Below are positions 8,427-63,401 of a DNA stretch of 64,000 nt, piece by piece. The DNA is taken from NCBI GenBank assembly GCA_015183035.1, contig JACZZP010000005.1, positions 1,984,001 through 2,048,000 on the forward strand. The letters are read 5' to 3'. Position numbers and translations under genes: made by a program. The notes beneath the pieces were generated by a model that was not told where the DNA came from, made no database searches, and saw only the letters and a program-made list of their open reading frames with translations. Source of the DNA: Meloidogyne chitwoodi. Lineage: Eukaryota > Nematoda > Chromadorea > Rhabditida > Meloidogynidae. Each line of letters starts with the position of its first letter. Positions within the stretch are counted from its first letter, which is position 1.

Positions 8427-10371
8427 TACTATTTTTTATTTAAAAACTAAAAATTAAATTATTAATTCTATTAAAACACTTTTAATATTTTTGAAGGATT
8501 TTTAAATAAAATTAATATATTAAAATAAAAAATACTTTTTTTTTTGTTAAATGATTAAATACTTATCCCCGAAAAATATAAAAATTGTTTTAAATTAATG
8601 ACCAGAGATATCCAATTTTAGATTCTTTTTGTAGTTTTTGATCTTAAATATTTTTAAGTTACTAAACTTAAGTATTTATTTAAAATAATTATTTTTTTGT
8701 GTACAAGAATAATTTTTATAATTTTTTATAAGAATAACATTTTCTTATTTTATTAGAATTATGTTATGTAAATGAGTAAATTCAATGGGATTAAGTAAAA
8801 TAAAATTAAATAAAAATAATTAAAGATTAAATTAATAAAAGTAAAAAATAAATATTTCAAAAATTATTTTTTTTTAATATTTAAATAAAAAAGATTAAAA
8901 AAAGATTAACATTTTCATTATAATAAAAGAAATAATTAATTGCGTGATTATTAAATTTTATTTTAGAATTTATTTGTATTTATTTGGCTTAAAATAAATT
9001 TTATTATTTAAAATTAATTTTCTTAAAAAATAAAAATAATTAAAATAATTTTATTGTTTTAATCTAAATTAAAATTATATTTTTAAATAATTAATAAATT
9101 TAATTTAAAATTGTATTATTAACATTAAAAAATATATTTTCTACGAAAAAAAAAATTTTATAGATTATTTTTTTTTAATTTCTAAAAATATTAATTAATT
9201 AATTATATCAGACATAAATATGAATAATAAGAAAAAAATTTTTTTGAAAAATTTAAAGAAACAAAGATTATAATTTTATATTTTTTAATCTCAATGAATG
9301 TTTTAATGGATTTTTAAAAATATTTTTATGACTTGATTGGTTTTTTAAATATTATAAAATTGTGAATTTATATTATTATGATGCTTTTTGTTAGATATTA
9401 ACATTTTAGCAGTGCTTGGAAAAAATAAAAAATTTGTATAATATATAATTTTCTAAAAATAGTTAATTTAATTTACAAGTTTAAAGGTTTATATACTTTA
9501 CAATAGTATTTTTAGGCTGTTTATATTTTTGTAAGTCAAAATTATCTTGACTAAAAAATATTAATTTTCCATTAATGTAAACTTCTTGAATAAAATGTTC
9601 AATCACGATTTTTAAAAAATAATAAAAAATTTTCTAAGAAAAAGTGAAGAAAGAAAATAAATTAAGGGAGGATATGAAAAAGGAAAATAATTATCAAAAA
9701 ATTTAACATTCAAAAATAATAAAAATGAGTATTTAATGAATGATTAAAGCGGAAAAATTATGTAAAGTAGTTAAACGAGACAGAGTCTTTTGGGAATAAC
9801 CAAGACCGAGATTTTTTGATAATTTTTAAGTAAACAAGTTTTTTTTAATTGTTTATCATATTTTGTTTTATAATTTAATAATTCATAATTATATTTATTT
9901 ATTAATCAATTTTTGTATTCTTACTCAATATTATTTAAATAATAAATAATAATTATAATAAATACACACAATGACATTTATTTTTTTAATAAAATTTAAA
10001 AACAAAGTTATTTAATTAATTTTTATTATTATTTTCACCTGCTTTTATTTAATTATAGGTAGTATATTTATTTATTATTTTAGTTATATTTATTTATTAT
10101 TGTTTTATAAATTAAAAAAGTGCAAAAAGTTGAACTTAATTTAATAAAATAATAATTGTAATTTGTTTGTTTAAAACAAAAAATTAGTTTATTTAATAAA
10201 ATAATATTTTAAAATATTATCTAAACAGACATTTTTTTAAATTTATTTATTTTTTTTTTAAATAGAATTAAAAAATAATTTTAAAATTATTATGTGATTT
10301 TAAAATAATTTTTTAAGTTTATATTAATTTTAATTAATTAAAATTAAATAAAATTAATTTTAGATTATAAA
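8427..10371. other. Divergent intergenic region between two receptor genes
   Basis: About 1.9 kb of very AT-rich DNA between the starts of the Sre-like gene (-) and the Srg/Srv-type gene (+). It should hold both promoters. The only structured sequence I can point to is the hairpin motif at 9524-9554. No ORF of note. Confidence 0.6.
9524..9554 (-). other. Hairpin + CAAAAATA motif, copy 1
   Basis: Read on the minus strand: stem AGTCAA/TTGACT, then TACAAAAATA. Intergenic. Confidence 0.6.
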
Positions 10372-13060
10372 ATGAGCTTTTTCTTATCTGCCCCAATTGT
10401 GTTTTTAGCAAATACAGTTTATTTACCATTTATTATTTCTGTAATTATTGGCATACCTTCAGCTTTTTTATATTTGTTTGAATTTGTAATTATTATTAAA
10501 AATTATAAAGAATATAATTCTAGTTTTTTTAAATTATTTATTGCCCGAGCTATTTTAGTAAGTTTATTTTTTTAATTATTGTGGTTAACATTCTCTCTAT
10601 TTTCTGTGATACTTTTGACCTTAATCATATTTATTTTTTTGTTTAAAATAAATTAAAAAATTAATTTTAGAATTTGGTTAATTTTTTTATCTCTTTTGGC
10701 CAACGTTTTGGTAAAATTGGTTTATTTACAAATATTTACCTTCAATTACCTCAATGCGTTCTGAATATTATTTTCTTTTTTGGTTATTATTGTATACATG
10801 GAGAAAATATTGCTACAGTTATATTATTACTTAATAGATTTTCTTCAATTTTATGGCCATTTTCTTATGAAAAAGTATTTATATTTTAGGGTTTAATGGA
10901 TTAGGATCTCATCTAAAAATTAGAATAGAGTGTTGGGAGATAATTTAAATCTCAAATGGAATCGAGATCCAAAAAACCTGTGATTGTGATTAATTACCGG
11001 GAATTAGAAAAAACCAGTGATCGCAATTCAGTAAAGTCGTGACTTTGTCCCAATCCTTCATTTTATTAAATATTAAAATGTTTAATTATTTTTAAGATAT
11101 GGAAGTTAATTTTACCAATAAACATTTTGCTTATTTTTATACTTCCTCTAAGCATTACAATTCAAATATCAATGATTGACCTTTATCCTCGTTTACAGGC
11201 TGATAATCAAACAATTACAATTGCTTCTCATCATATCTCATCTGGGGATTTTGATTGTGCACAACATGCTGCATATTCCTGTGTTATTTTTATGTTTATT
11301 TGTTTGTTAATAAATTTAGCTACTTTAATTACTTATAAAACAAAAACTAAAAATACTTTAATATCCTCTAATGGAAATCAACAAAAAATTGAAAAAAGAC
11401 TTACAATTTATGCTATTTGGACTTTTATTGGACAATTTTGTATTTCTACTTCTACGGTAAAAATAAAGAAATTTATAATTATTTTTAAAGAATTTTAACT
11501 GATACTACCCTTTAAAAACATTTTTAGTAAATCTAAGGGATTTGGACAAGAACTGGAAAAAAAATTAAATTAAATTTTTAATTGATTGATTTTAAGTTAA
11601 AAAATAAAATATGTTAAAAATTTAAATTCTAAATTTAAGACGCTTATATACATCTCAACATACTTTTGCTTTAACACAAATTTGCTCTCATATGATGAAT
11701 GCCAAAACTTTTTTCTAGTAATTTTTAAAATTATTTTATTTTCTAAAATTCAGCAAACTTAATTAAGTATCTCTTTGGAGAAATTGAAAAATTAATTAAT
11801 TTGTTGTAATTATTTAAGAAAATTTAATTATAAATTTTCAAAAATAAATATATTGGTATTTAACCAAACACTCGATAACTTTTTAAAACTTATATTAGAC
11901 AAATTTTTTTATTTATATTTAAAAAATTATATTTGCACATTCATCTCTACATATATTAAATCTTAAAAAATAATTAAATAAAAAATAAAATAAGTTCTGA
12001 AAAAACTAAAAATTTATGTTTAAAAAGTTTCGAAAAATTTTTTAGATCTATAATGCTAAATAAAAATCTGTTTTCTAAAAGTTTTTTTCTTCTTTATATT
12101 TTCGATTTAAATGTTTTAAAATTCTAGTTATAATATTTAAAAAGTTATACATCTGCTTAAAATTAAATAATTAAATTATATTCATATTATATTTTCGAGT
12201 GTAATATTTTTTCATCTCTTGTGGTTTTACTTTCTACCTATTTACAAATTAAAGCTATTTTTTTGATAATTTGCCTGAAAAATATTCAAGCTTCCAAAAA
12301 TATAGAAGACAGTTTACTCCCCATTAGAGCCCTGAATTTTGATTTATGCGAAGTTTAACTTATTTATATATTCTTTTGAAACAATTATTTCATAATAAAT
12401 AAAAATGTTTGTAAATTTTACAAGTTTATTTATTACGATGTTAATTTTTTGAATTTTGTATTATTAATTATTTTGGCAATTTTAATAATCTGATTTTGCT
12501 ATAAATAATGTTTACTTTATTTAGTCAAAATTTTGACTTCCAAAAATAAAAGGCTTTGTCGAAAAGGAGACTTCAAAAATATTTATATATTTAACTAATA
12601 AATTAAATTATTTTTACAATATTTAATATTATTTAATTAAATTTTACTTTTATTTTAAATTATTTATTTATTTTTACTCTTATAAATTAAAAATCAAGGA
12701 TTTTTTGCAATTTTTATCTTTTTGATCTTCAGAGATTAACTAATAGATAATTAGTACAAAAAATAGAAAAAGTTAAATAAACACTTTAAAACAAAAATAC
12801 CTAAAAATAATTAATATTTTACCTTTAATATTTAAAAATATAATTAATTAATTAATTTTATTTTTTAATTTTAAAAGTCTGTCTTCAACCAATACTTTCT
12901 TGTCTCTGATATAAGTACAATTGTTTTACCCTCTTGGCTTTTGCTTTGGGCTAATGAACAGACAAGAAAACATTTAATTCAAAAAATTAAAGAAGTAAAG
13001 AAAATATTTACTAAAAATGGAAATAATATAATACATAATATTAGTATTATGTATGGCTAA
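10372..13060 (+). CDS. Srg/Srv-superfamily serpentine chemoreceptor, intact
   Basis: Seven-transmembrane chemoreceptor of 336 residues. Exons are 10372-10557, 10671-10874, 11097-11456, 11640-11717 and 12878-13060; phases close and it ends with TAA. Landmarks shared with its paralogues are IPSAFLYLFEFVIII, SSFFKLFIARAIL, LLNRFSSILWPFSYEK, RLTIYAIWTFIGQF and the last-helix region DISTIVLPSWLLLWANE. The third exon fuses what are two exons in the paralogues, so one intron was lost here or gained in the others. The last intron is long (1160 bp) and contains two copies of the hairpin motif. Srg and Srv are both in the Srg superfamily and I cannot separate them by eye. Expression in chemosensory neurons is family inference. 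Confidence 0.82.
12271..12302 (+). other. Hairpin + CAAAAATA motif, copy 2
   Basis: Stem GCCTGAA/TTCAAGC with one mismatch, then TTCCAAAAATA. In the last intron of the receptor gene. Confidence 0.55.
12520..12548 (+). other. Hairpin + CAAAAATA motif, copy 3
   Basis: Perfect palindromic stem AGTCAAAA/TTTTGACT, then TCCAAAAATA. Same intron as copy 2. Confidence 0.65.
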
Positions 13061-13331
13061 AATATTATATTTTAATTAAAATTTTGTAACAAAATATTTT
13101 CTTATTTATTGTCGTGTTTGTTTTATCTCTAGCTACTATAAATAAAAAAAATAAAACTTTATTTTATTAAATTTAAATATTGTAAGAAAATTAAAATTTG
13201 TGGAATAAATATTTAAATAATTTAATTTTCCACAATTTAAAATTTTTAACAAAGATTTAGAAGAAAAACCAGTAAAAGAAAAAGAATATACCTATTATTA
13301 TTATGTGTTATTTAATAAATATTAATTTAAT

Positions 13332-16300
13332 TTATTCAGAATCTTCTTCACTTGAATTAGCAAAATTAGAACGAATTCCTTCTATTTTTCTTTTAATCAA
13401 CAAATCTTTTTCTTTATCATTTTTTTCTAATTTATCTTTTTCTTTTAATTCTTCAAGTTCTTTATTTTTATTATTATTAGATGTTTCTCCAATATTCTAA
13501 AATAAATATTAAATTAAATTAATTAATTATTATTAAATTTTATTCTTTTAAAAAATACCGAAAAAAAATAAAATAAAAATTGTAACAAAGTAAAACGTTA
13601 AAAAATGGTTAAAGATTTCTGATCGAAGTAATAATGTTCCATTTTAAATTGAATAAAATTTAATATAAATTTATTACCTTGTTTAATGAATTAATTTTAA
13701 ATGAAGATGGAATTGGAGGTGGTGGTCGATTATCTTTTTTAAAAAATTAAATTTATTTAATATTTTTTTTTATTAAATTACTTTTTGATTTAAGCGGAGG
13801 GGGTGGTGGTGGTGGTGGTGAAGGATGTGGTGTTAAATTAGATTTTAGAGAGCTTCCATGCTTCGAAGGTGGCAGTGGCGGTGCTGGTGGTGGTGTTATT
13901 GTTTGTTGTAATTTTTTATTAATTAAATTATTTTGTTGAAAAGGTGGTGGTGGTGGCGGTGGTGGTGAAAATTTTGAAATATTTGAATTTTGTGTTAATT
14001 TTATATTTCCAATTCTATTTGTTTTAATATTTTGATTTTGTTCAGAAATTACTGCTAATTGTTTTATAAATTCTTTTTCTTCTTCAATATTTAATTCAGT
14101 AATAGTTTCTTCTATATTATTATAATTTAATGTTTCTTCTATCGCTTTAAGAATTTCTTTATTTAATTCATCACTTTTCTAAATTTGTAAATAAAAAATT
14201 AATAAAAATAGCAAAAAAAATTATTAGTTGAAATTAAAGCATATTTAATTATTTTTAGTGAATTATTATTATTAAAAATGAGGATTTGAATTAAATATAT
14301 TTATAATTAATATTTATAATTAAATACAGGTATATCTATAACTTAGTTTTCAACCCAAAAACTATTATATAAACTTTAGCCAACTTAATGTTAGCTTCCA
14401 AAAATACAACGGGGCAATGGAACAAACAATGTAGTATTAATTAATTATATCATTTAATTATTTAAATATTTGGAATAATTACTATTATTTTCTTTATTAA
14501 AAAATTTATCCTCAAAAATATTATTAAATAAAATAAAATAAAATTACTTTTTTATTTTCCATTTTTTTGTTTGAATTTAAAAGTTTTTCAAAACTTTCTT
14601 CTAATGCCTTAAATCCATCGATACGATTTTGACATCTTTTATCAATATCACTTTCGTCTAAATAAAAACCTAACCATTTAAACATTTCTGACTCTTTTTC
14701 TATTTTTTCAAGTTGTTTTTTAATTAAATTTATTTCATTAATAAGACTAGCTGCTTCTGAATATTTAACAAAATATTTATCCATTTCATCTATTTTTTCT
14801 TTATTCTTTTTATAATCAAAGTATCTTAAATAAATAATTATTTTTTTTAATTTTTAATTATTTTTTAATTAAATTATTACATCCCACATTCTTATAAAAA
14901 TATTGAAACTTATTTTAAAATAAAATTAATTATATTTTGTCTGTCACCAGAAAATTATAAGCTATTTGTAACACAGAAATAATAAAAGGAAAATTCTACA
15001 TCTCCTGTATTTTTTTGGTTTAGCTTAAAAAACCGATAAGTTTATTTTTGTTAAACTTCTACTCATAATAATGGCTAAATAAATTTAAAAGGAAAGATAT
15101 ATTCATTATAATTAAATTTTTTAGCTTTTTTTATGGTTTATCTCATATAATTTTATCAGTTAATCTAAATTATTTTTATTTTCCTAATTTTATTAATTAT
15201 TTAATAAATTAATATTAATTAAAATTTAAAAAAAGCTTACAAATTTTTATTTTTATTAAATTTATTTTTTAAATTATTTAATTGTTCTGTTAAAATATTT
15301 TCATTTTTACCCAAATTTGAATTTTTTATTTTTAACAATTTTATTATTAAATAGGATATATCATCTATATCTTTTAATTTTATTTCATCATTTTGAAATT
15401 TTCTTTTTAAATAATCTGGTAAATAATTTAAATCTAAACTTTTTAATTGTTTATCTGATGCCTTCTGTAAATTAGACAATTTTAGTAAAATTATAATTTT
15501 TTGAATTTTTAAATAATTTTTATAAAATAATTGACAAAATTATCATCATCAAAAATGTCATTTTAATTTATTAGAATTATTATAATATTTTAAAAATATT
15601 AACAATCATTACTCAATTAATTATTATTCTTTTATTTATTGGAACCTTTCGTCCGCCTAATCTTGTCTCTCATTAATTAAATTATTAATTAAATTATTAA
15701 TTAAATTATTAATTAAATTATTAATTTAAAGTATTTTTTGGTTAGATGAAAATAAAATTTAACTACCTAATTTTTAAATTAATTTTAAGCTAAACTAGAG
15801 ACCAAATGACTATAATATTTTATGATAATTTTGTTAATTAAACAAAAATATTTATTAAAAACATTTTTTAATTTTTTAACTAACCCAATTTAAAAGATTA
15901 ATTAAATGTAAAACAGTGCTAATTATTTGTTTAATAAATTCTTTTTCATTTTCATCAAAAGTTGGTATATTCAATGATGATTTTAAGTAAATAATTTCTT
16001 TATTTGCTTCAATTACCTTTGAAAAAAATATTTTTTTAAATATTTTTTTTTAATTAAAAAACCTTTTTTTCATAAACAAATTTTTTTGATAAAATATCTC
16101 TAAAATATTTATTTTTATTAATTAACCAAATATATTGATCTTCCAAAGAATATTCTTTTATTTGTTCTTCTGTCTTTTTTGAATATTCATTAAACTAAAA
16201 ATAATTATTTTATTTTTTTTTTTAATTTTAAAAAATAACTGGAATAACAACATCTTTTATTTTTTTTAAATCTGTATAATTTTCAAATAAAAGTTCAATT

Positions 16301-19300
16301 TTTTCAATATCCATTTCCTTCTCAATTTCTGACCAATTTGAATCTTCAACATTTTTGAAAAATTCTTTGAGTTCGTCAAATTTAATATTTTCTGTTTTCT
16401 TTTTGTTAAAGGCTCTAAATTTAAAAATTATAGAAAATTTAAAATTTTTTATAAATTTATTTTAGTCTTAGAAAAAGCTAAGACTTACAAAAATACAAAG
16501 CAAATTTATATTTAAGATACCAGTTAATATTTAATTAATGTCTAAATCTTTTTATTAAATGTACAATTTAATATTTTTTAAATTAAATTATTTGTTCAAG
16601 TTCATTAGAATTAAATTTAAAAAAATTTTTCTAAATAAATAAAATAACTTTTTTTTAATAGAAAAAAAATAAAAAAGCACTTCTACAATATTACTTACAA
16701 AAATTTAGCCAAAACAATATTTGGCTTGCAAAAATATTAAACAAAAAAATTTCCTAACATAAGCATAGAATGTAATATAAATTTATATAAAATATTTTTT
16801 GAAAAATTATATATAATGTAACTAAAGTTAAGTAAAGTTTAATATTTAATGGGGGCTTTATGCTATTTATTGATCAGAAAACCTATTTTCCATATTCTGA
16901 TTCGTATTGTGTCAGTAGAGTCTGAATGGATAAAGCCTGATTTTTCAGGACTATTCTCCTATTCGAAATAATTGGAAATTAAAAAATCAGAACACATTTA
17001 GATATATTTAATTTTTTGCTATTTTTGTCAAAAACACCTTCATCACTCTAAATATTAAAAAATTAAAATTTAGTACTTAACTGTTTCAGCACTGTACTTA
17101 AAATGAATTTAATCGGATTAAAAGATATCAGCATTTTTTGATTGTTTTTTAAATTATTTTCTTTTTTTAATAATTCTTTTTTATTTTTTATTTTAGCTTC
17201 AAATGATTTAAAAAGCTTTAAAAAAATATTTTAATTTATAAAAATAAAATAAAAAAACATACAAAAGGTACAATTGTAAACATATTTGCTTCTTTAATTG
17301 CTAATGCTGGTGAAAATTCATAATCTGACCAAATATTATTTAAATAATGTTTTTGTGCTTAAATAAATAAATAAATAAATATATTTAATTTAAATAAATA
17401 CAATTTAAATGTCTAAATGGAAAAGCAGTAAATGCACTAGTTTTTGTTTGAGTAAATAATTCTTTTAATAATTCATTAAATTGTTTATTCTTTTTTATAT
17501 TTTCTGAATTTATATTTGGCAATAATTCTTCATTATTTTGGCTTTCCTTAAATTTTTTTTTATTTAATTTTTATTTTTAAATATTTAATTAAAAATGAAT
17601 TGTTTACTTCAAATTATTTTAATTACTCTATAAATTTTCTAAATTTTTTTTAAATTCATCTGAGGAAGGAGGACTATATTTATATTTGGCACATATTTTA
17701 GAGAATTTAAAATTAGGATTAATCGAAATATATAAAAAATCCGATTTATTATGATTTTTAGAATTAGTTGAAACTTAATAAATCAGTAATTTATTTAAAT
17801 TAAATTTATTTTGATTAAAAAACAAAAAAAAACTTCTTGTTGAATTGTGTTTAAATCCTTAACATGTTCAATCACTTTATTATTTTGAGAAGAAGAACTG
17901 CCCTCTTCTTTTATTGTGTTTTTATCTAGTACATCATTTTGAATATCTAAAATATTAATTTATATATTTTAATAAAATATATATAAATTAATTTTAAAAT
18001 ATTAAAAATATCAAGAATACACCTGAAGGCATTTCTTCAAATTTAATATTATTTTCATCTTTTTCAATATTATTTATTCCAACATTTAATTTTATTGTTT
18101 TTTCTTCTTCAATTTTATTTGCCAAATTTAAACCACAATTTAATAATTTTTTAGATTTATTTTTAAATTTTTGTAAAATTTTAAATTTATTATTTTTATT
18201 AATAGAATTTTGTCTTTCATTTTGATTATTATTATTACCTCTTTTTATTCTTCCAATTCTAATTAATTTTTTAGGTCTAATTCGAACTGCTGTTAAAAAA
18301 ATTTAAAAAATTAATAATTTTTTTAATTTCCAAAATTTTAGTGAATTATTTTAAAATTTAAAAATAATGTCTTTTCAGTGTTAGACAAAAAATAAAAAAA
18401 AACGAAATATAATTACCTTTTCTTAATTTTTTTAATTTTTTACAATTAAATTCATTATTTTTTTTATTATTATCAGAATTAACTAAAACATTTTTAATTT
18501 TATTTTTTTTCTTTTTTATTATTCCATTTATTTTATTTATTCCTAAATGATTATTTAGTTTACTTTTTTCTTTTTTATTTTTTTTATTAAATTTTTTTTC
18601 TTTATTTTCTTTAAAAGAAGTAATTTCTGATTCATTTATTTGATCATCTTTTTTTCCTTTAATATTTTTTTCTTTATTTAAAAATTCTTTTTCTGTTGAT
18701 TTTTCAAAATAATTATTATTTTGTTTTTTATTTTGTTCAAAATTTGATTTTTTTAAAGAAAATTCATTAATTTCTTCTTTTTCTTTTAATAAAGGAATTT
18801 CTTCACTATTAAATTTAATTAATTGTTTTTTATTTATTAAAGAACCAGTACTTTTATTTCTTTTTAATTCTTTAAGTTCTTTAATGTTTTCAATATTTTT
18901 AGAATTTATTTCATCTTCGTCTAAATTTTAATTTAAAAAATAATAATATTTTTTAATTTAATTAAAAGTATTTTTATAAATTTTTTAAATTTAATTAATA
19001 AATGGTCACAAGACAAAATTAAAAATAAGTTCACTAATAAATTAGCGAATTAATTTTTATATAAATTTTCTTTTTATTTTTTTATCAATTATCTGAATAG
19101 AGACTTTTTTTAATTTTATTTTTTTCTTAAAATTTTTAATTTTTTTTATTATTATTAAAAAAATTTTTTTAAATAAATTATTGTTAAATAAATAAATAAA
19201 ATAAAATTTCTCCCAACTTATTTCTTCTTCAGAATTAGCAGAATAATATTCATTATTATTTTCAGAATTAGTTTCACTATTATTATCAGAATTAGCAGAA

Positions 19301-20763: not shown

Positions 20764-22714
20764 CGGAAATTCTATTTATTATTTTCTTGACTTTTTTGTT
20801 TTTACTCCCCGATTTTCTAATTCTGAGACGATATTGGAATTTAAAAAAAATAAGATATCTCAGCCTGGAATTTAGATCGATATTCTCATATTCCAATACC
20901 ACTGAACTAAATTTTAGAATTAAAAAAAAGAAAAATCTGTTCCTTTCTATGTATTAATTAATAAACAAAAAGCATTAATTAATTAACACTAACCTTGATT
21001 GTTTATTAAAATAATTAAAAGTACAAATAGCCTAATAAGCATTAGGCAAAATAATTTAGAGAATTTTAATAATAAATTATTTTTGTTTAACTAATTTTTT
21101 AAATTTCTAAAAGAATTTAATAAATTTATAAATAATATTTTCGCCTAAAACGCTTAAAAGCTAAAAGAATAAATTTTTAAAAATTTTAGGGTAAAATAAG
21201 GAAATTTCTCTTAAAATTTAGATTTTTTTCTCTACGAACATTTAATTTTAGTCAAGAAACAATTAATTAATTAATTTAAAGGTTTTATTTTTATATTTTT
21301 TGGGAGAAATTTTTAATTAAATTATAAGCAAAAAATGCCATTTTACTTTATTAATCTATGTCTAATATAATATATTTAATTTCTCTTTTTTTCTTTTTTA
21401 TTTAATCTCTAATAAATTTTATATCTTTTCTTGCCCAATTAAAAATGAAGGAATACGTGTTAATCAATGTTAATTAATTAATTATTGTCTCGCGACAAAT
21501 TTCAAAATATGGTCATTGAGAAATAATAAAAATAGTCAAACATTTTGGTTTATTTTAAAAATAATTATAATTTAATTTAATAAAGACACTAATTATTATT
21601 ATTATTCGGACAAAAGAATCAACGCCCATTGGCCTTATTTGTTAGATCTACTATAGTAAATTATGTTTAGCAAAAATATTTTTTTTTAATTTCTCTCCGA
21701 ATTAGAAATTCCAAATATATATTTTTAAGTCAGGTAAGCTAAAAAATAAAATAGCTAAAGCAGAGCTTAGCTTCCAAAAATAATAAGATGGCAATTCAAA
21801 CTTAGCATACAATAGGCAAAAATAAAATTATTGATTAATAGGGAAAAAATAGATTTTACATATTAAACAAAATTTTAAAATTTATTTTTTAAAAATTATT
21901 TATTTGGGATAGTGATAATTAAAAAAACACAAAAATAGAAGGATAAACTTTTTATTTTAACCTTCATTTTCTAAAAGTGTTGATCAAATTTTTTTCCAGA
22001 AAGCCTAGGCAAATAATCCTCATAAGTAATTTTCCTTAAAAATAAAAAATAATTTTATCTAATTTTTTAGAAAAATAAAAAATTTAATTCACACCCTTGT
22101 ACAGCAACAGCAATTCTAAAAATTAAATACTATATATCTGATTTTATATCAAAAATAAGAAAAAGTACAAGGTACGAAGTACAAAGAAAATAAAAATAAA
22201 TTAATATTCAGATGTTTTAGATATATTAATTAATTATTAAAAAATTAAAAGTGTAAATGACTTAGTCAAGTTTTTATTTATTTTTTTAATAATTTTAATA
22301 ATATTCACACACAAACACAATTATAATAAAAGTTAAAAGAAAATTAAATATTAAAATAAAACAGGTGGAAAAATTAATTATATTTCAAATTGAAATATAA
22401 AATAACTGAAATTAATTTGATATAAAATTAATAAAATTTATTATTTAATTTTATTATAATTTATTTATTTAAATAAAATTTTTTTAATTATATTAAATTC
22501 AAAAAAAACTCTTTTTAATTAAATATTATGAATGAAAAATATTTATTTATTTATTATTTTTGAAAATTTTAATTAAGTTGACCACTTTAAGAAAAACAGA
22601 TTTTTAATTATCCACAAAAGATATACCTAGCATATTTGAGATTTAAATTTGTAAACTTTTATTATTAAATATAACTAATATTTATTCATAAAACTTTTAA
22701 AATAATTAATAAAA
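20764..22714. other. Divergent intergenic region
   Basis: About 1.95 kb between the start of the large minus-strand gene and the plus-strand receptor at 22715. Very AT-rich with no convincing ORF. It holds hairpin motif copy 7; otherwise I see nothing. Confidence 0.6.
21751..21782 (+). other. Hairpin + CAAAAATA motif, copy 7
   Basis: Stem AGCTAAAGC/GCTTAGCT with one bulge, then TCCAAAAATA. Intergenic. Confidence 0.6.
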
Positions 22715-24611: not shown

Positions 24612-24641
24612 ATTAGCTAGCAATGCTAGCTTACAAAAATA
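24612..24641 (+). other. Hairpin + CAAAAATA motif, copy 8
   Basis: Perfect stem AGCTAGC/GCTAGCT with loop AAT, then TACAAAAATA. Intergenic. Confidence 0.7.
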
Positions 24642-25811
24642 TGACTCTTAATACGAAACAATATCTTCAAAAAAGAGAAAAATTAAATAATATATAAATT
24701 TATTATTTCAAAAATTAAATATTAAGCAACTCAATTAATAATTTAATTTGATCTGTATTTATTACATTTGCCATAAAACCAATGTCCTTTATTTAGGTGT
24801 GTATACCAGGGTTCCCAGTTTAAATAATTAAAATACACAATTTGAAACATAAAAAACATATTAAGGAAAATTCACATTTTCGGCATTAATTTCAAATTTT
24901 TAAAAATTTCAAAAAACAACAAAAATACACATTTATAAAAAAATGCATCAAAAACCTAAAAAAAATAAACAAAACACGTATAAAATGCAAATTTGGGAAC
25001 TCTGATGTAAATTAAAGAATTCTACAAAAAACTAAACAAATGCTATATAAAAAATTAAATTTTAAGCTTACCAAATTGGCAAAGCGATCCAAAAATTAAA
25101 ACTAAAAACAAATACATATATATGCTATACAGCAAAGACTAATTGGAAAACCAAACTACTAAATGAATAATAAATTAATAAAGACGAGAAGTAAAAAAAT
25201 ATTTTTTCTAAAAATTTTAAAAAGAAATGACTAAACATTAAATATATTTATTTATTTATTTATTACCTATTTAATTATTTCTCTAAAACTCATTTTTTGG
25301 GAAACGCTCATATATACCTATTTAAGGACAATTTGTTGCAAAGATAGTGTTAAGAGATTTTGATAAATTAATGAGTATTTAATAATTAGCTACCGAATTT
25401 CTATGTGCTTCTAAATAGAGAACTATGTACCTAAAATATATGAAAAATGGGGCAAATATAAGGAAAAATATTTGAAAATTTTGACAAAAATCCTTTATTA
25501 AATTTAGTTTACACCCAGAAACAACTGACTTTTGTCATTTTAGAAAAGAAAATGAATTAAAATATAAAGATTCTGTTGAGTTTTTCACGGATGGATCCAC
25601 TAAAAAATTCGAAAAATTGCAAAAAAATGCGAATTATATATGGAAAATATTTGAATATGTGCCAAAATATTTTTAAATATCTGAGAATAAGATTCGTGCA
25701 TAACTCAAACATGGATTTCAGTAAAAATACGTGAAAACGTAAAAATCCGGGCCCTAATTATTACAACCTCATAAATATTCACATATGTGCTGTAAAAAGT
25801 AAAAAAGTAAA

Positions 25812-25841
25812 ATTAGCTAGCATTGCTAGCTTACAAAAATA
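25812..25841 (+). other. Hairpin + CAAAAATA motif, copy 9
   Basis: Perfect stem AGCTAGC/GCTAGCT with loop ATT, then TACAAAAATA. Nearly identical to copy 8, 1.2 kb away. Confidence 0.7.
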
Positions 25842-26128
25842 TACAAAGGACACACCAGTAGGATTTTCAGCAGTAAAATAATATGTATATAAAATAATAT
25901 TTCAAAATTTAACTATTTATTAAACAACACAGCTAATAATAATTTTATATTTTCCACAAAATAATTAAATTTTAATATGTTTTTTTGGGTTTTCTTATAT
26001 AATTTGTAAATATTTTTAAGAAAATAATTAAATATTATTATACAATTTGAATTTAATAAAAAAAAAATTTGTTTATTTTACAAAAAATAATTTTAAACAA
26101 TTTTAATTTATTTTAATTTATTTTCTTT

Positions 26129-41000: not shown

Positions 41001-43920
41001 TTTTGATTTTTTGTAAAAAAGAATTAATTATTTTTAAAAGAAAAAAAAAAAGATAAAAAAGAAGCAGCAGCCTCGGTAATCACCTTAAAAGACCAAAAGA
41101 AAAGAGAAAGAAAACCTACTCTGCGCTCTCTGCCTTTGTCTCTTACAAATTATAACACCTTACTTTGGTTTTTTAGGCATAACTTTTTTTTAAATTTAAT
41201 TAAAAATATGATCTAAAGTCTAAAAAATAAAACATAAAATTAGCTTTATTTTAACAGTTTTTTAGCCATATAAAAAGATAGGCTTGCAAAAATAATCATG
41301 TGAAAGTAAATTGTTTTTCGAATTTTTATTTTCTACTAAAATTTAAGTAAATAAATAAATTTATATTATTCTAAATTATTAAAATTTTATATAACATATA
41401 TAATTAATTTAATTATTTACAACAAAAGAGAAAATAAAAATTTGTGTTTTGAATCTTCCTTTTTTTTGAATCCTTATTTTTGCAAGTTGGACTCTAGACT
41501 CCAACTAATATTCCTAGCTTAATTTATGTTCAAACTTCATTCATGACAATTTTTAGATTGAAAAAGTTTGCCATTTAAGCCTCACATTTTTATCTTCCCC
41601 AAATTTATCAATTCTAGTTTGAAAATTAAATTTTATAAAATTTGGCCACTTTTTAAAAATTTATAGCAAAAACCATTAATAGGCTATCTACCCATTTTTT
41701 CTTAAATTTTTTTGGGCATCGCTTTTATGCAGACTTTATCATAAGTAATTAAACTATAATTTTTATAATTAGTTTTTATTTAATTTTTGTCTGTGTCTTC
41801 TTGCCGATACGGCACCTCCAAAGAATCACTCTTCTTTCTCTACACTGTTAAACCTTTTGCAAAGAATATAATCTAATAATAATATTTAATAACTAACCAT
41901 TAACAATCATTTGTCCAACACCTGCAATTCCAGCCATTCCATGATACATAGGTAAAGATATATAAATTACATCATTTGGCACAATACCAAAAATTACAGG
42001 TCCAGCAATGCCCATAAAGTAATATCGATAATGACGAATAATTACAGCTTTAGGTTGTCCAGTTGTTCCACTTGTATATAAATAAGCAAGAATATCTTAA
42101 AAACATATATATTTAAATTATTTTTGTAAGATAACAGACTTAAATTGTATTTTTTTTAAATGATTATTAGAGCATGGGAAATTATCAAGGATTCAGATGA
42201 ATTTTAAACTTAACGCTAGAGATGTTAGTAAAATAAATTTTTTTTTAGCCAAAGACACTGCTTGGCTTACAAAAATATAAATCGCCATCAAAGGTTCGAA
42301 AGTTCATATTTTAGGGAGCAGGCCAGTTTACCGCAAGGCCGGTTTACCGCAGGGCTATAACTTATTTTATATTTACCAAAAATTTTCGACCCAAACATGG
42401 TTCGACTCAGCTCGACGAGCTGAGTCGAATGACACTAAGATCTCTATTATATGACAATTATAAACAGAGTTATACCCTTGCGGTAAACCGGCCTTGCGGT
42501 AAACTGGGGTGTACCCCATATTTTAAATTCTAGTTATATTTATGGGTTTAATTAATTAAAATATTTAATATTATTTAAATACATTATCTTTTAATTATTT
42601 TATTTATTTACTTTTAAATCCAATTATTTGTTTTGTTTTATTAGGTGTTGTTTTGTTGTTTAATTTATTAATATTTAATAAAATAATATTATTATTATTT
42701 TCTTCAAAATTATTAATTTCATTTTGGCTGTCAGAAATTATGAATATTTTAATTTTTGAATTTAATAGTCCATCATTCATTAATTTTATCAATTCTTAAA
42801 CTTAATTAATTAGTTTAACCTTAAATTATTGGCCAAAGTAGCTTATATTTTTAAACTTATCAGCCTTCATTCTGGTATTTTTAAATGGAAATACTAAATT
42901 CCCTTTATATATTTATCAAAATTAAATAAATTAATAATTAAATAAATTAATAATTTATATTATTACCTTTAACAAATATTTTTGATGTAATAATTGCTTT
43001 ACAATTAACAATATTAATAGAATGTAGTAATGAATGTCCAATTAATTGTGTATTAATCCAACTTGTTTTAATACCAATTTTACTCAATCCTAGCCAAACA
43101 GCCACAAATTCAATACAATTTTCTAATAAAATTCCAATTGTTTTTGACACATTTTCTTCATTATTTTTATTTATTTCCAACTTTAAAAATATTAAATTTA
43201 ATATTTAATATTTTGGATAATTCTTCAAAAAATATTATTTGTCAAAAAGTGGAAAAATTGATTTAATTACAAATAATTTTAATTGCTAATGTGGAGGAGC
43301 AAATAATTTAAAAAATTAATTTTTTAACCTTTTCATTAAAATAATTTCCAAATTTATTAGATAAATTATTTAATTCTTCAAAAGAAATGCTTTTTCCATT
43401 TTCAGATTCTATAATACAAGTCTTTTCTTTAAATTTATTTACTGTATTTTCAAAAATATTTCCAATAGATAAATCTTTTTTCCATTGCTTTTCCATCTCA
43501 TTTTGTAATTTTTTTAGTCGAAAATATCCTCTAAAAATAATTTTAGAAATTATTAAAATTAAAATAATTATTTTTATTGATCCCTTTCTTAATGTCCTTT
43601 TTTTGAATTTTTTTTTGTGGACTCAAACAGTAAAAAATAAATTAATGTTACCCATTCCAATAATTCCCATACATTAAATTAATTATTTAAAAAATTTAAC
43701 TTTAAAATTACCTTAAATCTCTGCTTAAAGTTTTCAAACATGATTTCATAAATTTAGAAGAAAATAAAAAAAGAAAAAATAAAAAAGTTAAAATAATTAA
43801 TAATTTTTGTGTAAAAAATAAAAATATAATTAATCCAATAAATAAATTAATAATTATATTTTTTATTTCAATAGTGTTGATTATTTCGTTAAAAATACCT
43901 TTAGCAAAATAAAAATCCAT
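38089..43920 (-). CDS. FATP/ACSVL-type very-long-chain acyl-CoA synthetase
   Basis: ATP-dependent acyl-CoA synthetase of the fatty-acid-transport-protein (SLC27/ACSVL) family, activating long or very long fatty acids at a membrane. Exons: 43920-43712, 43530-43329, 43180-42967, 42794-42612, 42095-41898, 40891-40655, 40194-40082, 39321-39076, 38542-38363, 38310-38089. All are in phase, giving 667 residues. N-terminal membrane segments (about 20-60) precede the AMP-binding domain. The P-loop is YTSGTTGQPKA, the family signature ELYGATEGN spans a splice junction, and the second signature reads DTFRCCGENVS. The usual Trp-Lys pair of RWKGENVS is Cys-Cys here, although the frame is open throughout. 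Introns host several hairpin motifs, one TIR element and an inverted copy of the repeat found downstream of SPRY genes. Confidence 0.92.
38874..38905 (-). other. Hairpin + CAAAAATA motif, copy 10
   Basis: Minus strand: perfect stem AGTTGAA/TTCAACT, then TGCAAAAATA. Intron of the acyl-CoA synthetase gene. Confidence 0.7.
39593..39623 (+). other. Hairpin + CAAAAATA motif, copy 11
   Basis: Stem TGTCAGC/GCTAACA with one mismatch, then TCCAAAAATA. Intron of the acyl-CoA synthetase gene. Confidence 0.5.
40361..40394 (-). other. Hairpin + CAAAAATA motif, copy 12
   Basis: Minus strand: stem AGTCAAAA/TTTTGACT, then TCCAAAAATA. Intron of the acyl-CoA synthetase gene. Confidence 0.7.
41085..41250 (-). 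repeat. Copy of the SPRY-downstream repeat (in an intron)
   Basis: Read on the minus strand it matches, in order, AAATAAAGCTAATTTTAT-like, TTTAAAAAAAAGTTATG-like and GGCAGAGAGCGCAGAG segments also seen downstream of SPRY genes (49890-50035, 55441-55535, 57815-57975) and in another intron at 59285-59455. Confidence 0.65.
41261..41293 (+). other. Hairpin + CAAAAATA motif, copy 13
   Basis: Weaker stem AGCC/GGCT with partial extension, then TGCAAAAATA. Intron of the acyl-CoA synthetase gene. Confidence 0.5.
41475..41508 (-). other. Hairpin + CAAAAATA motif, copy 14
   Basis: Minus strand: perfect stem AGTTGGA/TCCAACT, then TGCAAAAATA. Same intron as copy 13. Confidence 0.7.
42244..42277 (+). other. 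Hairpin + CAAAAATA motif, copy 15
   Basis: Stem AGCCAAAG/CTTGGCT with one bulge, then TACAAAAATA. Intron of the acyl-CoA synthetase gene. Confidence 0.65.
42314..42517. mobile_element. Short TIR element, AGTTTACCGCAAGGCC arms
   Basis: 204-bp element whose arms share CAGTTTACCGCAAGGCCGG in inverted orientation. It is flanked by ATATTTTA at 42306-42313 and 42518-42525 (8 bp). The terminal 15 bp of the arms are imperfect. A central palindrome GACTCAGCTCGACGAGCTG recurs in other TIR elements of the window. It lies in an intron of the acyl-CoA synthetase gene. Confidence 0.78.
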
Positions 43921-44920: not shown

Positions 44921-45854
44921 TAGAGATCGGATTTTTAGGTTATAACCTATTTTTTTTACAAATCAGTCTTGACGAATCAAGCTCAAATCTGCAGTTATTT
45001 TTGAAAAATTATGTGTTTAGACGTGACCTATTGGCATGTCCCAAAACCTATTTTGGCGTTTTGTAACCTAAAATAGGTGACAACCTATTTTGGCTTTTTG
45101 TCACCTTTTTTGTATATTTTCGTCAAAATTTATAAAATTTTAAAATTTTCGTATATATTTTGACAAAATTTAAGAAAATTTTAAAATAAAATGCAAAAAT
45201 TCAATTAAAACCCGAATAATTACTTAAAAATATCACTAATAAAAAAGTGACAAAATATCACTAATAAAAAAGTGACAAAATGTCACTAATAAAAAAGTGA
45301 CAAAATGTCACTAATAAAAAAGTGACAAAATGTCACTAATAAAAAAGTGACAAAATGTCACATAAAAAAGTGACAAAATGTCACTAATAAAAAAGTGACA
45401 AAATGTCACTAATAAAAAAGTGACAAAATGTCACTAATAAAAAAGTGACAAAATGTCACTAATAAAAAAGTGACAAAATGTCACATAAAAAAGTGACAAA
45501 ATGTCACTAATAAAAAAGTGACAAAATGTCACTAATAAAAAAGTGACAAAATGTCACATAAAAAAGTGACAAAATGTCACTAATAAAAAAGTGACAAAAT
45601 GTCACATGAAAAATGACAAAATATCATTTTTTACGATAAATTTGCTACTATAATTAGTTTTTGACCTTTTTTTTATCGAATTCGTTATTTTTTGTTATTT
45701 TTGCCTATAATTTTTGTAAAAATCGCCAAAATAATGAATAGAATAAAAAATTTTTTTAACCTATTTTGAAGTTTTTGTAACCTATTTTGGTCTTTTTTCC
45801 AACCTATTTAGGTACCTATTTTAAGGTTTTTGTCACCTAAAAATCCGATCTCTA
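44921..45854. mobile_element. hAT-like MITE, TAGAGATCGG termini, expanded minisatellite
   Basis: 934-bp second copy of the 35654 element, inverted relative to it, flanked by ATCATTAC at 44913-44920 and 45855-45862 (8-bp TSD). The interior minisatellite is expanded to roughly 15-16 units at about 45230-45610. It ends 28 bp before the 3' end of the bHLH gene. Confidence 0.92.
45230..45610. repeat. 25-bp minisatellite inside the MITE
   Basis: Tandem units of AAAGTGACAAAATGTCACTA with the spacer TAAAA. Some units are shortened by three bases (TGTCACATAAAA). Each unit is itself a small palindrome (GTGACAAAATGTCAC). Confidence 0.9.
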
Positions 45855-45882: not shown

Positions 45883-47681
45883 TTAAAAGTTAAAATATTC
45901 CATTTGTTCAACTTTCTCTTCTAGTTTTTCAACATTAAAGCTATTTGCACTAGTCGATGCTTAAATTTAAAAAATTGGTATTTTTATTAAATAAATATTT
46001 ATTAATTTTTAAATTAATTTTATATTTTTTTTAAATAATTTTAATTTACTTAATTTTACCTCTGTCCAAATTTGGAGTTGAAGAGCTTATATTCATTTTA
46101 TTAAATTTAACAAGCAATTGATTTTCTTTTTGAAGTTGGATACATTTTTGTTGTAAATGTTCCACTAAAATAATTATATTTTCAAGAACATCCGCTTTTT
46201 CTAATTTACTACAATTTTAAAAAATTATATTTATAATATTTTATGAAATATTTTCTACCTTTGTCTTAATTCTGAATGCACAACTATTTCTTTAAGTTTT
46301 TCATAACAATTATTTATTCGTTTTCTTCGTTTTTTCTCCATCAAAGGCCTTTTTAACTAAATTAGTTATAATTTTAAAATTTTTTGTAAAATATTTAATT
46401 TAATAAATATGGGGTGATCTTAAAGCAAAGTTGTGTCAATATGAACTTAGAACTTTACTTAAGTTTGAACTTATAAACACTTGAGTCTTAGCCTTAGACA
46501 ATTGTCTTTAGTTTCTGGACGCGTCAGAATTTTTTAAGATTTAAGTTTCCATCAGAACTTATTTTTATAAAAAATGTTTGATTGAATCCTTAATTAATAA
46601 TCATATTAATAACTTAAAAAATTTGTAGGTACTTGTGTGTTATCCCCACAACTTGCGGACAAGTTTTTCCGGACAAATATTAATTTGTTCCCTCTTCTTC
46701 CATTTGCCATCGGCACCCAATCAATAGATTAAATTTTGTTTAATGTATAATATACATGAAAACTAAGAATAAAGTCATTATTATTTTCTATTTGATTTTA
46801 GCATCCTATTTAATTTATAATGAAAATTTGGGATTTGCCAACAAATGAAAAAGATGCCATCGAATTCTTACAAGATCATGGTCTTCTACACAAAACGAGA
46901 GTTTGTCGCAATGGGGATGAAATGAAACTTCATTACTATCAACGTCCATTTGGCAATGTAGCAGATGAAGGAGACGTTTTTGAAGAAATTATGCTTGCTT
47001 GGGGGAAATATTGGCCATTAGATTGATTTTTTCTTTTATATATTTTCTATTTAAAAAATAAATTTGTCCGCAAAAACTTGTCCGCAAGTTGTGGGGATAA
47101 CACACAAGTACCAATTTGTATAATATTTAATTTAATAAATATGTGTGATTTTAAACTTAGAAATTTCGGTTTTAATAGAACTTCAGCAAACTAAAATTTA
47201 ATATTTTTGGAAGCCAATTTTTTTGGCTATTATAACCTCTCATTTCCAAAACCAGTTCTAGTTTTAATATAGATTATATTTTAATTCTAAATTCATTTAT
47301 TTGTTTATATACTCGTTTAACGATCAACTACTATCAAAAATTCAACAAAGATGCGGATTATAATTCAAATTTTAATGTGCATTAAGTTTTTTATTGACAC
47401 CCCATTTTTGGCACTTATGATAATTGGGTGTGTGGCACAACGGAAAAGAACCTTTTTATCAAACCGAAAAATATAAAATTTTAAAAATATTTTGAAATTT
47501 TTTGTCAAAAATTTACCAAAGTAGACGTTACAGTAGTTTCAGGCCTAATTTGTGAATCAGTACGATTTGATAGAACATCCTGAAATAATTTATTATTTTT
47601 GAATTAATATATTTTTTAAATAATTAATTTATCAAATTTTACCTCTTTATTCCAATTAGAATTTAAAGAGCTTTCAGTCAT
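45883..47681 (-). CDS. Hairy/E(spl)-type bHLH protein with SPRY-family-like first exons
   Basis: Sequence-specific transcription factor of the HES class. Exons are 47681-47643, 47579-47517, 46356-46259, 46208-46060 and 45959-45883, in phase, giving 141 residues. The bHLH (about residues 35-86) starts LKRPLMEKKRRKRINN, with the proline in the basic region that defines Hairy/E(spl) proteins. Helix 2 is SKLEKADVLENIIILVEHLQ, extended by a short Leu/Gln coiled coil. No Orange domain or C-terminal WRPW is visible, so it may act without Groucho. Exons 1-2 (MTESSLNSNWNKE, then DVLSNRTDSQIRPE) closely resemble the first two exons of the SPRY genes nearby. The 1.16-kb intron 2 contains a TIR element and one hairpin motif. 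Either the gene is a true chimera or the 5' exons are an orphan SPRY fragment. Confidence 0.72.
46628..47112. mobile_element. TIR element with GGTACTTG termini and short Merlin-like ORF
   Basis: 485-bp element; ends GGTACTTGTGTGTTATCCCC and its inverse, about 40 bp of pairing, flanked by AATTTGTA at 46620-46627 and 47113-47120 (8-bp TSD). It encloses a 68-codon ORF (46820-47026, +) beginning MKIWDLPTNEKDAIEFLQDH, with a C-x-NG-x-EMKL stretch. That resembles the zinc-ribbon start of ISXO2/Merlin-type transposases. The catalytic part is absent, so the element is non-autonomous. It lies in intron 2 of the bHLH gene. Confidence 0.82.
47202..47232 (-). other. Hairpin + CAAAAATA motif, copy 16
   Basis: Minus strand: stem AGCCAA/TTGGCT, then TCCAAAAATA. 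Intron 2 of the bHLH gene. Confidence 0.65.
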
Positions 47682-53046: not shown

Positions 53047-53065
53047 ATCAAGTACATATATATAT

Positions 53066-54178: not shown

Positions 54179-54190
54179 ATATATATATAG

Positions 54191-55360: not shown

Positions 55361-55440
55361 AGAATGAAATAATGTTTTGAAAATCAATTTAAATAATCGA
55401 TACATTTATAATGAATATTTTTAAATTAATTTTTGGATAA

Positions 55441-55535
55441 ACTTTAATTTTTAAAATAAAGCTACCTAATTTTATTATTTATTTTTCAGACTAATTTATA
55501 TTTTTATATTAATTTAAAAAAAAATGTTTAGAAAA
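55441..55535 (+). repeat. SPRY-downstream repeat, copy 2
   Basis: AAAATAAAGCTACCTAATTT, then an A-rich tract to AAAAATGTTTAGAAAATC, in the same order as the other copies. The GAGAGCGCAG part is missing. Confidence 0.55.
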
Positions 55536-55602
55536 TCATATTTAGTGAATAATTAGCAGTGCTTGGAAAGTTCCATTTTCTAGTAAATTTAAATTTTATA
55601 AA

Positions 55603-62924: not shown

Positions 62925-63401
62925 CTGATTTAAAAAAAATATTAAAATTCTTTCTGTTTTATAGCTAAAAATTCAGTAAAAATTAGAAAAGCTTTTAAAT
63001 TGTTGTTTTTGAGTTTTGAAATTTGACTAAAATATTTTCTGATTATTTATTTTAATTATTTAATAAAATAATTTTTGGGATTATTCAGCCAGAATTAAAT
63101 TTTTTGTCCAAAAAGATAGTAAAATATAAAATAGAACAAAAAAGGGTTATATTTAATTTCAACTATCCTCCACAGATTGGAGCTTTATTTTAGAAAATAC
63201 CTTTATCATAAACAGAAATTAAGCTATATTTTTTAATATTAAATATACTAAAAAACTAAATATAATTATTTCTACTAGTAGGACTTACAATTAGTGTACT
63301 GTACCTTTTTATTAGGTTGTAATATTTTTGGAGGTCAAGCTTTGCTTTGATTAAATGACTTAAAGGGAATAAAATTTGATAACCTAAAATTGGTTTCTTA
63401 G
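62925..63401. other. Upstream of the poly(A)-polymerase-like gene
   Basis: Should contain the missing first exon and promoter of the minus-strand gene, but no convincing ATG exon in the required phase could be picked. Hairpin motif copy 17 is here. Confidence 0.5.
63323..63354 (-). other. Hairpin + CAAAAATA motif, copy 17
   Basis: Minus strand: stem TCAAAGC/GCTTGA with one bulge, then CTCCAAAAATA. Upstream of the poly(A)-polymerase-like gene. Confidence 0.55.

What the first reader, a model, noticed from the sequence alone, without database searches (positions are those of the whole stretch)
9524..63354. Dispersed 30-bp motif: variable-stem hairpin followed by constant TVCAAAAATA
Seventeen copies (listed as features) share one layout. 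A W-T-A-G usually opens a 6-8 bp stem whose sequence differs between copies but whose arms still pair. CT closes the stem, and T, then A, C or G, then CAAAAATA follows. Stems include AGTCAAAA/TTTTGACT, AGTCTTAG/CTAAGACT, AGCCAAA/TTTGGCT, AGTTGAA/TTCAACT and AGCTAGC/GCTAGCT. They occur on both strands, only in introns or intergenic DNA, and the bases beyond the motif are not conserved. Six sit in introns of one gene (38.1-43.9 kb). A stem conserved by pairing rather than sequence suggests selection on structure, such as an RNA element, a protein-binding cruciform or a replication signal. I know of no named nematode element with this form. Alternatively it could be the end of a very old, mostly eroded repeat family.
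Basis: seen in the sequence. Interest (0 to 1): 0.82.

Follow-up and report, generated by a model that had tools for sequence, protein, structure and literature searches.

The report
Clustered Sm-RNA genes with unique guides
The repeated hairpin motif looks like the 3' end of hundreds of tiny RNA genes packed into two regions of a nematode genome, each with a shared promoter-like element and the landmarks of spliceosomal-type RNAs but its own fast-changing stretch of about 23-34 letters, as if the worm kept a large library of guide RNAs.

Summary
The motif is real, but it was read from the wrong strand and is only half of a larger unit. On the opposite strand each copy reads: promoter-like element (~26 nt), AT-rich linker, unique spacer (~23-34 nt), TATTTTTG (the Sm-site code AUUUUUG), 3' hairpin. 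There G.U pairs far outnumber A.C mismatches (17 to 3 and 34 to 1 in two partly overlapping sets), so an RNA of that strand is under selection. The upstream element starts 82-96 nt before the Sm site in 66 of 81 units; a motif trained on 46 units elsewhere finds it at 16 of 214 held-out TATTTTTG sites against 1 of 2,146 control sites. Genome-wide, strict patterns give 324 copies; 280 of the 303 listed lie within 1.75 Mb on two contigs. In a three-way segmental duplicate the flanks are 81-89% identical, one spacer only 22-52%. The spacer is unstructured; the two tested occur once in the genome. Tests for membership in U snRNA, SL RNA, SmY and piRNA loci were not met. Best reading: a large, chromosome-clustered repertoire of Sm-class RNAs with hypervariable, guide-like 5' ends. 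Transcription and targets were not testable here.

The parts
9434..9552 (+). Unit 1: promoter-like element 9434-9459, spacer 9494-9523, Sm site 9524-9533, hairpin 9534-9552
   Evidence: element score 16.9 at 90 nt, 6-bp stem
12278..12332 (-). Unit 2, probably decayed: Sm site 12293-12302, stem broken
   Evidence: element score only 4.0, outer stem 2 bp
12523..12636 (-). Unit 3: element 12611-12636, spacer 12549-12578, Sm 12539-12548, hairpin 12523-12538
   Evidence: score 13.7 at 88 nt, 6-bp stem
14378..14492 (-). Unit 4: element 14467-14492, spacer 14407-14436, Sm 14397-14406, hairpin 14378-14396
   Evidence: score 11.1 at 86 nt, 7-bp stem counting G.U; spacer unique in the genome at up to 3 mismatches over 22 nt
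16464..16581 (-). Unit 5: element 16556-16581, spacer 16496-16525, Sm 16486-16495, hairpin 16464-16485
   Evidence: score 9.6 at 86 nt, 8-bp stem
16707..16821 (-). Unit 6: element 16796-16821, spacer 16737-16766, Sm 16727-16736, hairpin 16707-16726
   Evidence: score 15.0 at 85 nt, 7-bp stem
21753..21870 (-). Unit 7: spacer 21783-21812, Sm 21773-21782, hairpin 21753-21772; promoter-like element weak
   Evidence: score 3.9, 7-bp stem counting G.U
24615..24729 (-). Unit 8 (best example): element 24704-24729, spacer 24642-24671, Sm 24632-24641, hairpin 24615-24631
   Evidence: score 22.5 at 88 nt, 7-bp stem
25815..25923 (-). Unit 9: element 25898-25923, spacer 25842-25871, Sm 25832-25841, hairpin 25815-25831
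   Evidence: score 13.1 at 82 nt, 7-bp stem
38781..38903 (+). Unit 10: element 38781-38806, spacer 38844-38873, Sm 38874-38883, hairpin 38884-38903
   Evidence: score 10.3 at 93 nt, 7-bp stem; spacer unique in the genome
40271..40391 (+). Unit 11: element 40271-40296, spacer 40331-40360, Sm 40361-40370, hairpin 40371-40391
   Evidence: score 9.4 at 90 nt, 8-bp stem
41264..41373 (-). Unit 12 (left half of a divergent pair): spacer 41295-41324, Sm 41285-41294, hairpin 41264-41284
   Evidence: PWM score 6.8, but the region between the two units is shared with two paralogs; spacer differs between them
41389..41506 (+). Unit 13 (right half of the divergent pair): spacer 41445-41474, Sm 41475-41484, hairpin 41485-41506
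   Evidence: PWM score 2.7; hairpin 19-22 of 22 and Sm 10 of 10 identical to paralogs in L027 and L030
42247..42379 (-). Unit 14: spacer 42278-42307, Sm 42268-42277, hairpin 42247-42267; promoter-like element weak
   Evidence: score 6.3 at 102 nt, 7-bp stem counting G.U
47116..47228 (+). Unit 15: element 47116-47141, spacer 47172-47201, Sm 47202-47211, hairpin 47212-47228
   Evidence: score 13.8 at 86 nt, 6-bp stem
63229..63352 (+). Unit 16: element 63229-63254, spacer 63293-63322, Sm 63323-63332, hairpin 63333-63352 with outer G.U
   Evidence: score 12.4 at 94 nt, 7-bp stem counting G.U

Best explanation
A ~26-nt promoter-like element (about TTRCTTAATATTAAATATTTSAAAA) starts 82-96 nt before the Sm site. 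After an AT-rich linker, transcription is inferred to begin ~23-34 nt before UAUUUUUG. The RNA (~55-65 nt) would be: unique unstructured 5' segment, Sm site UAUUUUUG, 3'-terminal stem-loop AG[YY..RR]CU. Shown: architecture, RNA strand, chromosomal clustering, spacer hypervariability. Inferred: Pol II transcription (the T5 of the Sm site would stop Pol III) and assembly into an Sm-core RNP, from the known code of Sm site plus 3' stem-loop (recalled). Inferred and less certain: the variable 5' segment acts by base pairing, either directly as the guide of an Sm RNP or as the source of a small RNA. The repertoire would diversify by duplication followed by rapid spacer change, as germline defence repertoires do. 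My estimates: Sm-class RNA genes 0.85; sequence-specific guide role 0.5.
For: (1) 12 stem-plus-tail sites vs 0 in 200 shuffles. (2) Strand: on the Sm strand G.U vs A.C is 17 vs 3 in 70 distinct hairpins of 76 element-selected units; 18 vs 1 at pairs 3-4 and 16 vs 0 at pairs 5-6 in 84 distinct copies from the 100 listed of 405 (the sets partly overlap). (3) Upstream element found by EM at 82-96 nt in 66 of 81; 45 of 52 strong PWM hits have ATTTTTG at the right distance. Clean hold-out: EM on 46 units of L029-L032 alone puts 42 at 82-96 nt, and on window+L009-L028 scores >=8 at 19 of 214, >=10 at 16 and >=12 at 11 TATTTTTG sites, against 1, 1 and 0 of 2,146 sites of eight control cores. Outside the training DNA, 6 of 14 Sm sites in L047-L059 score >=8 at 85-95 nt. 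(4) In units chosen without the hairpin, the outer 4 bp pair in 68 of 76 element-positive vs 104 of 218 element-negative. (5) Spacer GC 0.34, linker 0.10, n=61; folding z 0.02 vs -2.29 for the hairpin, n=73. (6) Hypervariability: flanks 191/214 vs spacer 5/23, p 9e-12; spacer below both flanks in 9 of 9 groups; L062-L064 have identical hairpins and different spacers. (7) Clustering: 280 of 303 listed strict copies on C25 and C26.
Against: No transcript evidence was available. The element does not match the promoters of two U2 genes (0.4, -1.4), two SL1 genes (-0.3, -6.9) or the SmY gene (3.1), so SNAPc control is unproven. Five of 16 window units score below 8, and with the hold-out motif 8 of 14 sites in L047-L059 and 2 of 3 in L062-L064 stay below 8. 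Only 2 spacers were searched genome-wide and neither found a target, so a guide role rests on variability alone. No related genome was available to show conservation. Excess spacer divergence is strongest in one three-way duplicate; over all groups the flanks exceed the between-group level only slightly (0.66-0.67 vs 0.60-0.61), and in the 96%-identical duplicate L023/L028 the spacer is unchanged.
Confidence: 0.72

Rival explanations
1. Sm-class RNAs whose 5' segment has no sequence function: a decoy or Sm-protein buffer in which element, Sm site and hairpin matter and the spacer is filler.
For: Spacers show no shared motif, no structure and no near-identical target for the 2 tested.
Against: Filler should diverge like neutral flanks, but the spacer is below its flanks in 9 of 9 groups and far below in the three-way duplicate. 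GC is raised over the spacer relative to the linker.
Confidence: 0.15
2. Hyperdiverse spliced-leader RNAs or SmY-like RNAs: the spacer is a leader exon or a degenerate first stem-loop.
For: Same Sm-site plus 3' hairpin layout as SL1 RNA (L060, L061) and SmY (L065).
Against: No donor enrichment in 72 spacers: GTAAG 0.00 vs 0.03 shuffled, GTRAG 0.03 vs 0.05. Spacer unstructured. No Rfam match at the units in 12 loci at E<=5. The one SmY above cut-off lies on C5.
Confidence: 0.06
3. DNA-level element (cruciform, replication origin, meiotic pairing-centre-like or centromeric box), dispersed in one chromosomal region like the C. elegans pairing-centre motifs (recalled).
For: Region-specific clustering on two contigs, both strands, introns.
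Against: Strand-specific G.U bias, fixed-distance element and spacer have no DNA-level explanation. Tandem Repeats Finder showed no array of units in the four sources scanned, though diverged local duplications exist.
Confidence: 0.04
4. Eroded ends of a transposon or SINE derived from an snRNA-type gene.
For: Neighbouring copies share stems, and local duplicates exist.
Against: A dead family would not keep compensatory pairs and element spacing while losing only an internal block of ~23-34 nt.
Confidence: 0.04

Closest known systems
Nematode type I piRNA (21U-RNA) loci, Ruby-motif dependent
   Same: Many independent tiny loci with a shared upstream motif and then a unique short sequence; in C. 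elegans two ~3-Mb clusters (PMC6436959 section 10); motif thought to derive from the snRNA promoter (section 9).
   Different: An Sm site and covarying 3' hairpin follow the unique segment; the motif is not CTGTTTCA (recalled); PRG-1/2 was not found in M. incognita or M. hapla (PMC5934874 passages).
SmY RNAs
   Same: Nematode-specific small Sm-class RNAs with a stem-loop 3' of the Sm site.
   Different: SmY has a conserved first stem-loop and twelve genes in C. elegans (PMC11229312 passages); here the 5' part is unstructured and unique per copy, with hundreds of copies.
Spliced leader (SL1) RNA
   Same: Sm site followed by a 3' stem-loop.
   Different: SL1 carries a fixed 22-nt leader and donor; the two promoters scored do not match.
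U1 and U2 snRNAs
   Same: Sm site AUUUUUG in U2; an AT-rich conserved block upstream at a similar distance (seen by eye).
   Different: Long conserved bodies; the two U2 promoters scored do not match the PWM (U1 seen but not scored).
Herpesvirus saimiri HSUR RNAs (recalled, no call)
   Same: Sm-class RNAs that base-pair with other RNAs.
   Different: A handful of viral genes, no repertoire.

Membership tests
Sm-class RNA genes (general) | Sm site of the AUUUUUG type at a fixed place | tested here: met
   45 of 52 element hits (PWM >=14) have ATTTTTG at +78..110; 56 of 295 TATTTTTG sites against 2 of 2,394 other T-rich cores carry the element >=12 (PWM trained on many of these; clean hold-out). 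In the strict copies TATTTTTG is there by construction of the search.
Sm-class RNA genes (general) | Stem-loop directly 3' of the Sm site | tested here: met
   outer 4 bp paired in 68 of 76; folding z -2.29, n=73; covariation with G.U on the RNA strand
Sm-class RNA genes (general) | Binding of Sm proteins, transcription | not testable with these tools
   no RNA or protein data held
Nematode snRNA-type (SNAPc/PSE) promoter | Element shared with U snRNA/SL promoters of the same genome | tested here: not met
   U2 0.4 and -1.4 (2 of 10 U2 hits scored), SL1 -0.3 and -6.9 (2 of 25 hits), SmY 3.1; U1 not scored
SmY (RF01844) | Covariance-model match | tested here: not met
   no SmY match at E<=5 in 12 loci, of which L029 and L030 hold 27 units; the genome's only match over cut-off is at C5
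SmY (RF01844) | Conserved first stem-loop 5' of the Sm site | tested here: not met
   spacer folding z 0.02, n=73
Spliced leader RNA | Conserved leader exon and splice donor | tested here: not met
   no SL1 start and no GTAAG in 72 spacers; other donor patterns at or below shuffled level
piRNA (21U) loci | Fixed upstream motif and unique short sequence, clustered | tested here: met
piRNA (21U) loci | Ruby core CTGTTTCA (recalled) | tested here: not met
   EM consensus TTactTAATATttAATATTTtAAAaA; some copies have TATTTCA
piRNA (21U) loci | Piwi/PRG-1 partner | not tested
   not searched in this genome; not found in M. incognita and M. hapla per PMC5934874 passages
Meloidogyne centromeric satellite box | Tandem satellite array carrying the box | tested here: not met
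   Tandem Repeats Finder shows no array of units in the window, L029, L030, L031 (6 window rows not shown); box letters were not seen, so no direct alignment

The most novel reading that the evidence does not exclude
A root-knot-type nematode from a lineage reported to have lost piRNAs carries a substitute: a chromosomal library of roughly 500-600 Sm-RNP guide RNAs, each with its own ~23-34-nt 5' guide, diversified faster than neutral DNA after duplication. This would be an animal RNA-guided repertoire built on the spliceosomal Sm core rather than on Piwi.
Probability: 0.4. Interest if true: 0.95.

Novelty: categorically new. Interest (0 to 1): 0.88.

Why it matters
Sm-class RNAs are known as small sets of conserved genes; a clustered repertoire of hundreds with hypervariable 5' ends is not among the families I tested, and I saw none in the listings of my paper searches or the passages cited. 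If the spacers guide anything, this is a new RNA-guided system in animals and a concrete candidate for what replaces piRNAs in clade IV nematodes. It makes predictions that existing small-RNA and capped-RNA reads could check. It would also show how a megabase piRNA-like cluster can arise from an snRNA-type gene.

Tried and rejected
Rejected with evidence: cruciform or DNA element, decayed repeat, SL RNA, SmY, tandem satellite. An early thought that the pairs are strictly Watson-Crick, and so a DNA palindrome, came from counting on the wrong strand; one search corrects it. YR-initiator enrichment relative to the element was looked for and is weak. Longest exact repeats of 72 spacers inside the 297 kb are only slightly above shuffled ones (mean 12.4 vs 11.9); the 27-mer is the L023/L028 duplicate and two 17-mers are A/T-rich; these were not followed. 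A whole-genome target search for all spacers could not be run. (all-against-all BLAST) timed out and was repeated with lighter settings. Rows dropped before counts: two of nine L031 copies (coordinate slip), 6 of 76 units (duplicates, an A after the Sm core, or no stem by a strand-symmetric score), and of the 100 listed copies the identical ones, two overlapping shorter matches and, by oversight, one fully paired copy (C25:368432); window candidate 3789 as chance. An earlier hold-out aligned its training units with a motif from all data; one search repeats it cleanly and replaces it.
Full report
WHERE IT IS. The window is bases 1,984,001-2,048,000 of contig C26 (2,652,232 bp) in a genome of 47,477,280 bp and 30 contigs. 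SL1 leader matches (25 with up to 1 mismatch), U1 and U2 matches (9 and 10) and one SmY match over cut-off fit a nematode; size and contig count suggest Meloidogyne chitwoodi, which is inference only.

THE OBSERVATION. The stem-plus-tail layout is real: 12 sites with a stem of 6 bp or more in the window against none in 200 dinucleotide shuffles. Genome-wide, four cognate stem patterns with the tail give 91, 121, 96 and 16 copies against 1, 0, 0 and 2 for the reversed patterns, 324 in all. The pooled pattern AGYY..RRCT gives 405 against 9. In 84 distinct copies from the 100 places that one search lists, both inner pairs are Watson-Crick in 66, against a mean of 28 and a maximum of 43 in 1,000 shuffles.

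WHICH STRAND. Twelve and 15 cells are neither. The two sets partly overlap. A DNA palindrome would give equal numbers. On that strand the constant tail reads UAUUUUUG, which contains AUUUUUG, the Sm-site code (recalled), directly followed by a stem-loop: the 3' end of an Sm-class RNA.

THE REST OF THE UNIT. Aligning 78 copies shows GC raised over ~25-30 nt next to the Sm site, then ~70 nt of very low GC. EM on the region beyond finds a 26-nt element starting 82-96 nt before the Sm site in 66 of the 81 units with enough upstream sequence (82 found). In 297 kb, 63 local maxima score 13 or more, and 52 ATTTTTG sites fall 80-99 nt after them. The clean control is: EM on 46 units of L029-L032 alone gives nearly the same consensus and puts 42 of them at 82-96 nt; on the held-out window and L009-L028 it scores 8 or more at 19 of 214 TATTTTTG sites, 10 or more at 16 and 12 or more at 11, against 1, 1 and 0 of 2,146 sites of eight other cores. 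With the same motif 6 of 14 Sm sites fetched elsewhere (L047-L059, on C1, C5, C7, C10, C12, C16) score 8 or more at 85-95 nt (24.8, 18.3, 17.4, 8.8, 8.6, 8.6); one has 7.2 and the other seven do not carry it (3.4 or less). L062-L064 score 4.7, 6.7 and 8.1. Selected by the element alone, 68 of 76 units have the four outer pairs, against 104 of 218 without the element.

THE SPACER. The ~23-34 nt before the Sm site are GC-richer than the linker (0.34 against 0.10, n=61), T-rich and unstructured (mean z 0.02, n=73). Within nine groups of related units the spacer is 0.58 identical, the same as between groups (0.56) and as shuffled spacers (0.57), while element (0.84 vs 0.67), linker (0.71 vs 0.60) and hairpin (0.83 vs 0.62) are clearly shared; the outer flanks are only slightly so (0.66 vs 0.61, 0.67 vs 0.60), but above the spacer in 9 of 9 groups. 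The strongest case is a head-to-head pair of units present three times (window 41.0-41.7 kb, L027, L030): neutral flanks are 191/214, 174/214 and 177/214 identical; spacer 1 is 5/23, 6/23 and 12/23; spacer 2 is 17/27, 14/31 and 18/31; Fisher p from 9e-12 to 3e-3. L062-L064 share an identical 38-nt 3' part and have different spacers. Against this, in a 96%-identical duplicate (L023/L028) the spacers are the same, so change is not instant. Two window spacers searched genome-wide with up to 3 mismatches over 22 nt found only themselves.

WHERE THE COPIES ARE. Of 303 listed strict copies (of 324; the 21 unlisted follow C26:2,484,722 in contig order), 169 are on C26 (1.70-2.59 Mb), 111 on C25 (0.13-0.98 Mb), 6 each on C16 and C17 (the same sequences also listed on C25), 6 on C12 and 5 elsewhere (my tally). 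Thus 92% lie in 1.75 Mb, 3.7% of the genome. The one on C10 has neither element nor a good stem and is probably chance. The pooled pattern recovers 55 of 76 element-positive units, so the total is probably above 500. In L029-L032 neighbouring units are 174 to 2,658 bp apart, often 180-600, with diverged local duplications.

WHAT IT IS. The layout - promoter-like element, unique 5' segment, Sm site, 3' stem-loop - is that of an Sm-class RNA gene; the organisation - a repertoire of unique short sequences in megabase clusters - is that of nematode piRNA loci (PMC6436959 sections 8-10). For each named family tested, at least one defining feature was not met: the U2, SL1 and SmY promoters scored do not match, Rfam gave no match at the units in 12 loci at E<=5 and only a tRNA in the window at gathering threshold, donor sites are not enriched, and the piRNA core motif is absent from the consensus. 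PRG-1/2 was not found in M. incognita and M. hapla (PMC5934874 passages); this genome was not searched for it. I therefore commit to Sm-class RNAs whose hypervariable 5' segment works by base pairing; the first part is well supported, the second is inference from variability.

NOVELTY RATING. I rate it categorically new because it shares the parts list of Sm-class RNAs and the organisation of piRNA loci but fails a tested defining feature of each named family; a stricter reader could call it a new variant of Sm-class RNA until transcripts are shown.

LIMITS. No reads, no sister genome and only ~300 kb of this genome, much of it from the clusters, could be read at length. Five of 16 window units have a weak element. 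Papers: PMC6436959 - passages and sections 8-10; PMC11229312, PMC5934874, PMC3694981 - passages; all others - search listings only.

Noticed in passing
L052 and L055 (C12:2547070-2547280; C7:1874760-1874970): Two Sm-hairpin sites with a different upstream region (TTTTACTTC..., TTTCTTTATG...) that by eye resembles SL1 and U2 genes: possibly another Sm-class RNA family.
   Followed up: partly
C16, C17 and C25:619-651 kb: C16 and C17 list the same patterns at the same or nearly the same positions, and the same sequences recur on C25: recent duplication or redundant assembly.
   Followed up: no
window 35695-36156 and 45107-45813: Similar minisatellite blocks (TGACATTTTGTCACTTTTTTATTAG and its reverse complement) with matching A/T blocks in opposite orientation ~10 kb apart, like an inverted repeat or a pair of elements.
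   Followed up: no
L029:7101-7311: Long inverted repeat scoring on a plant miRNA model on both strands below its cut-off; probably a MITE.
   Followed up: no
window 42320-42355, L030:1869-1904, L031:585-620: Related 16-bp repeats (AGGCCAGTTTACCGCA-like, both orientations) recur near units.
   Followed up: no
window 38336-43204, minus strand: Intron-rich gene whose exons match AMP-binding enzymes (3 of 5 exon ORFs above cut-off, 1 below); five units lie between its exon ORFs, on both strands.
   Followed up: partly
C25:405100-405121: An SL1 RNA gene lies inside the C25 cluster.
   Followed up: partly
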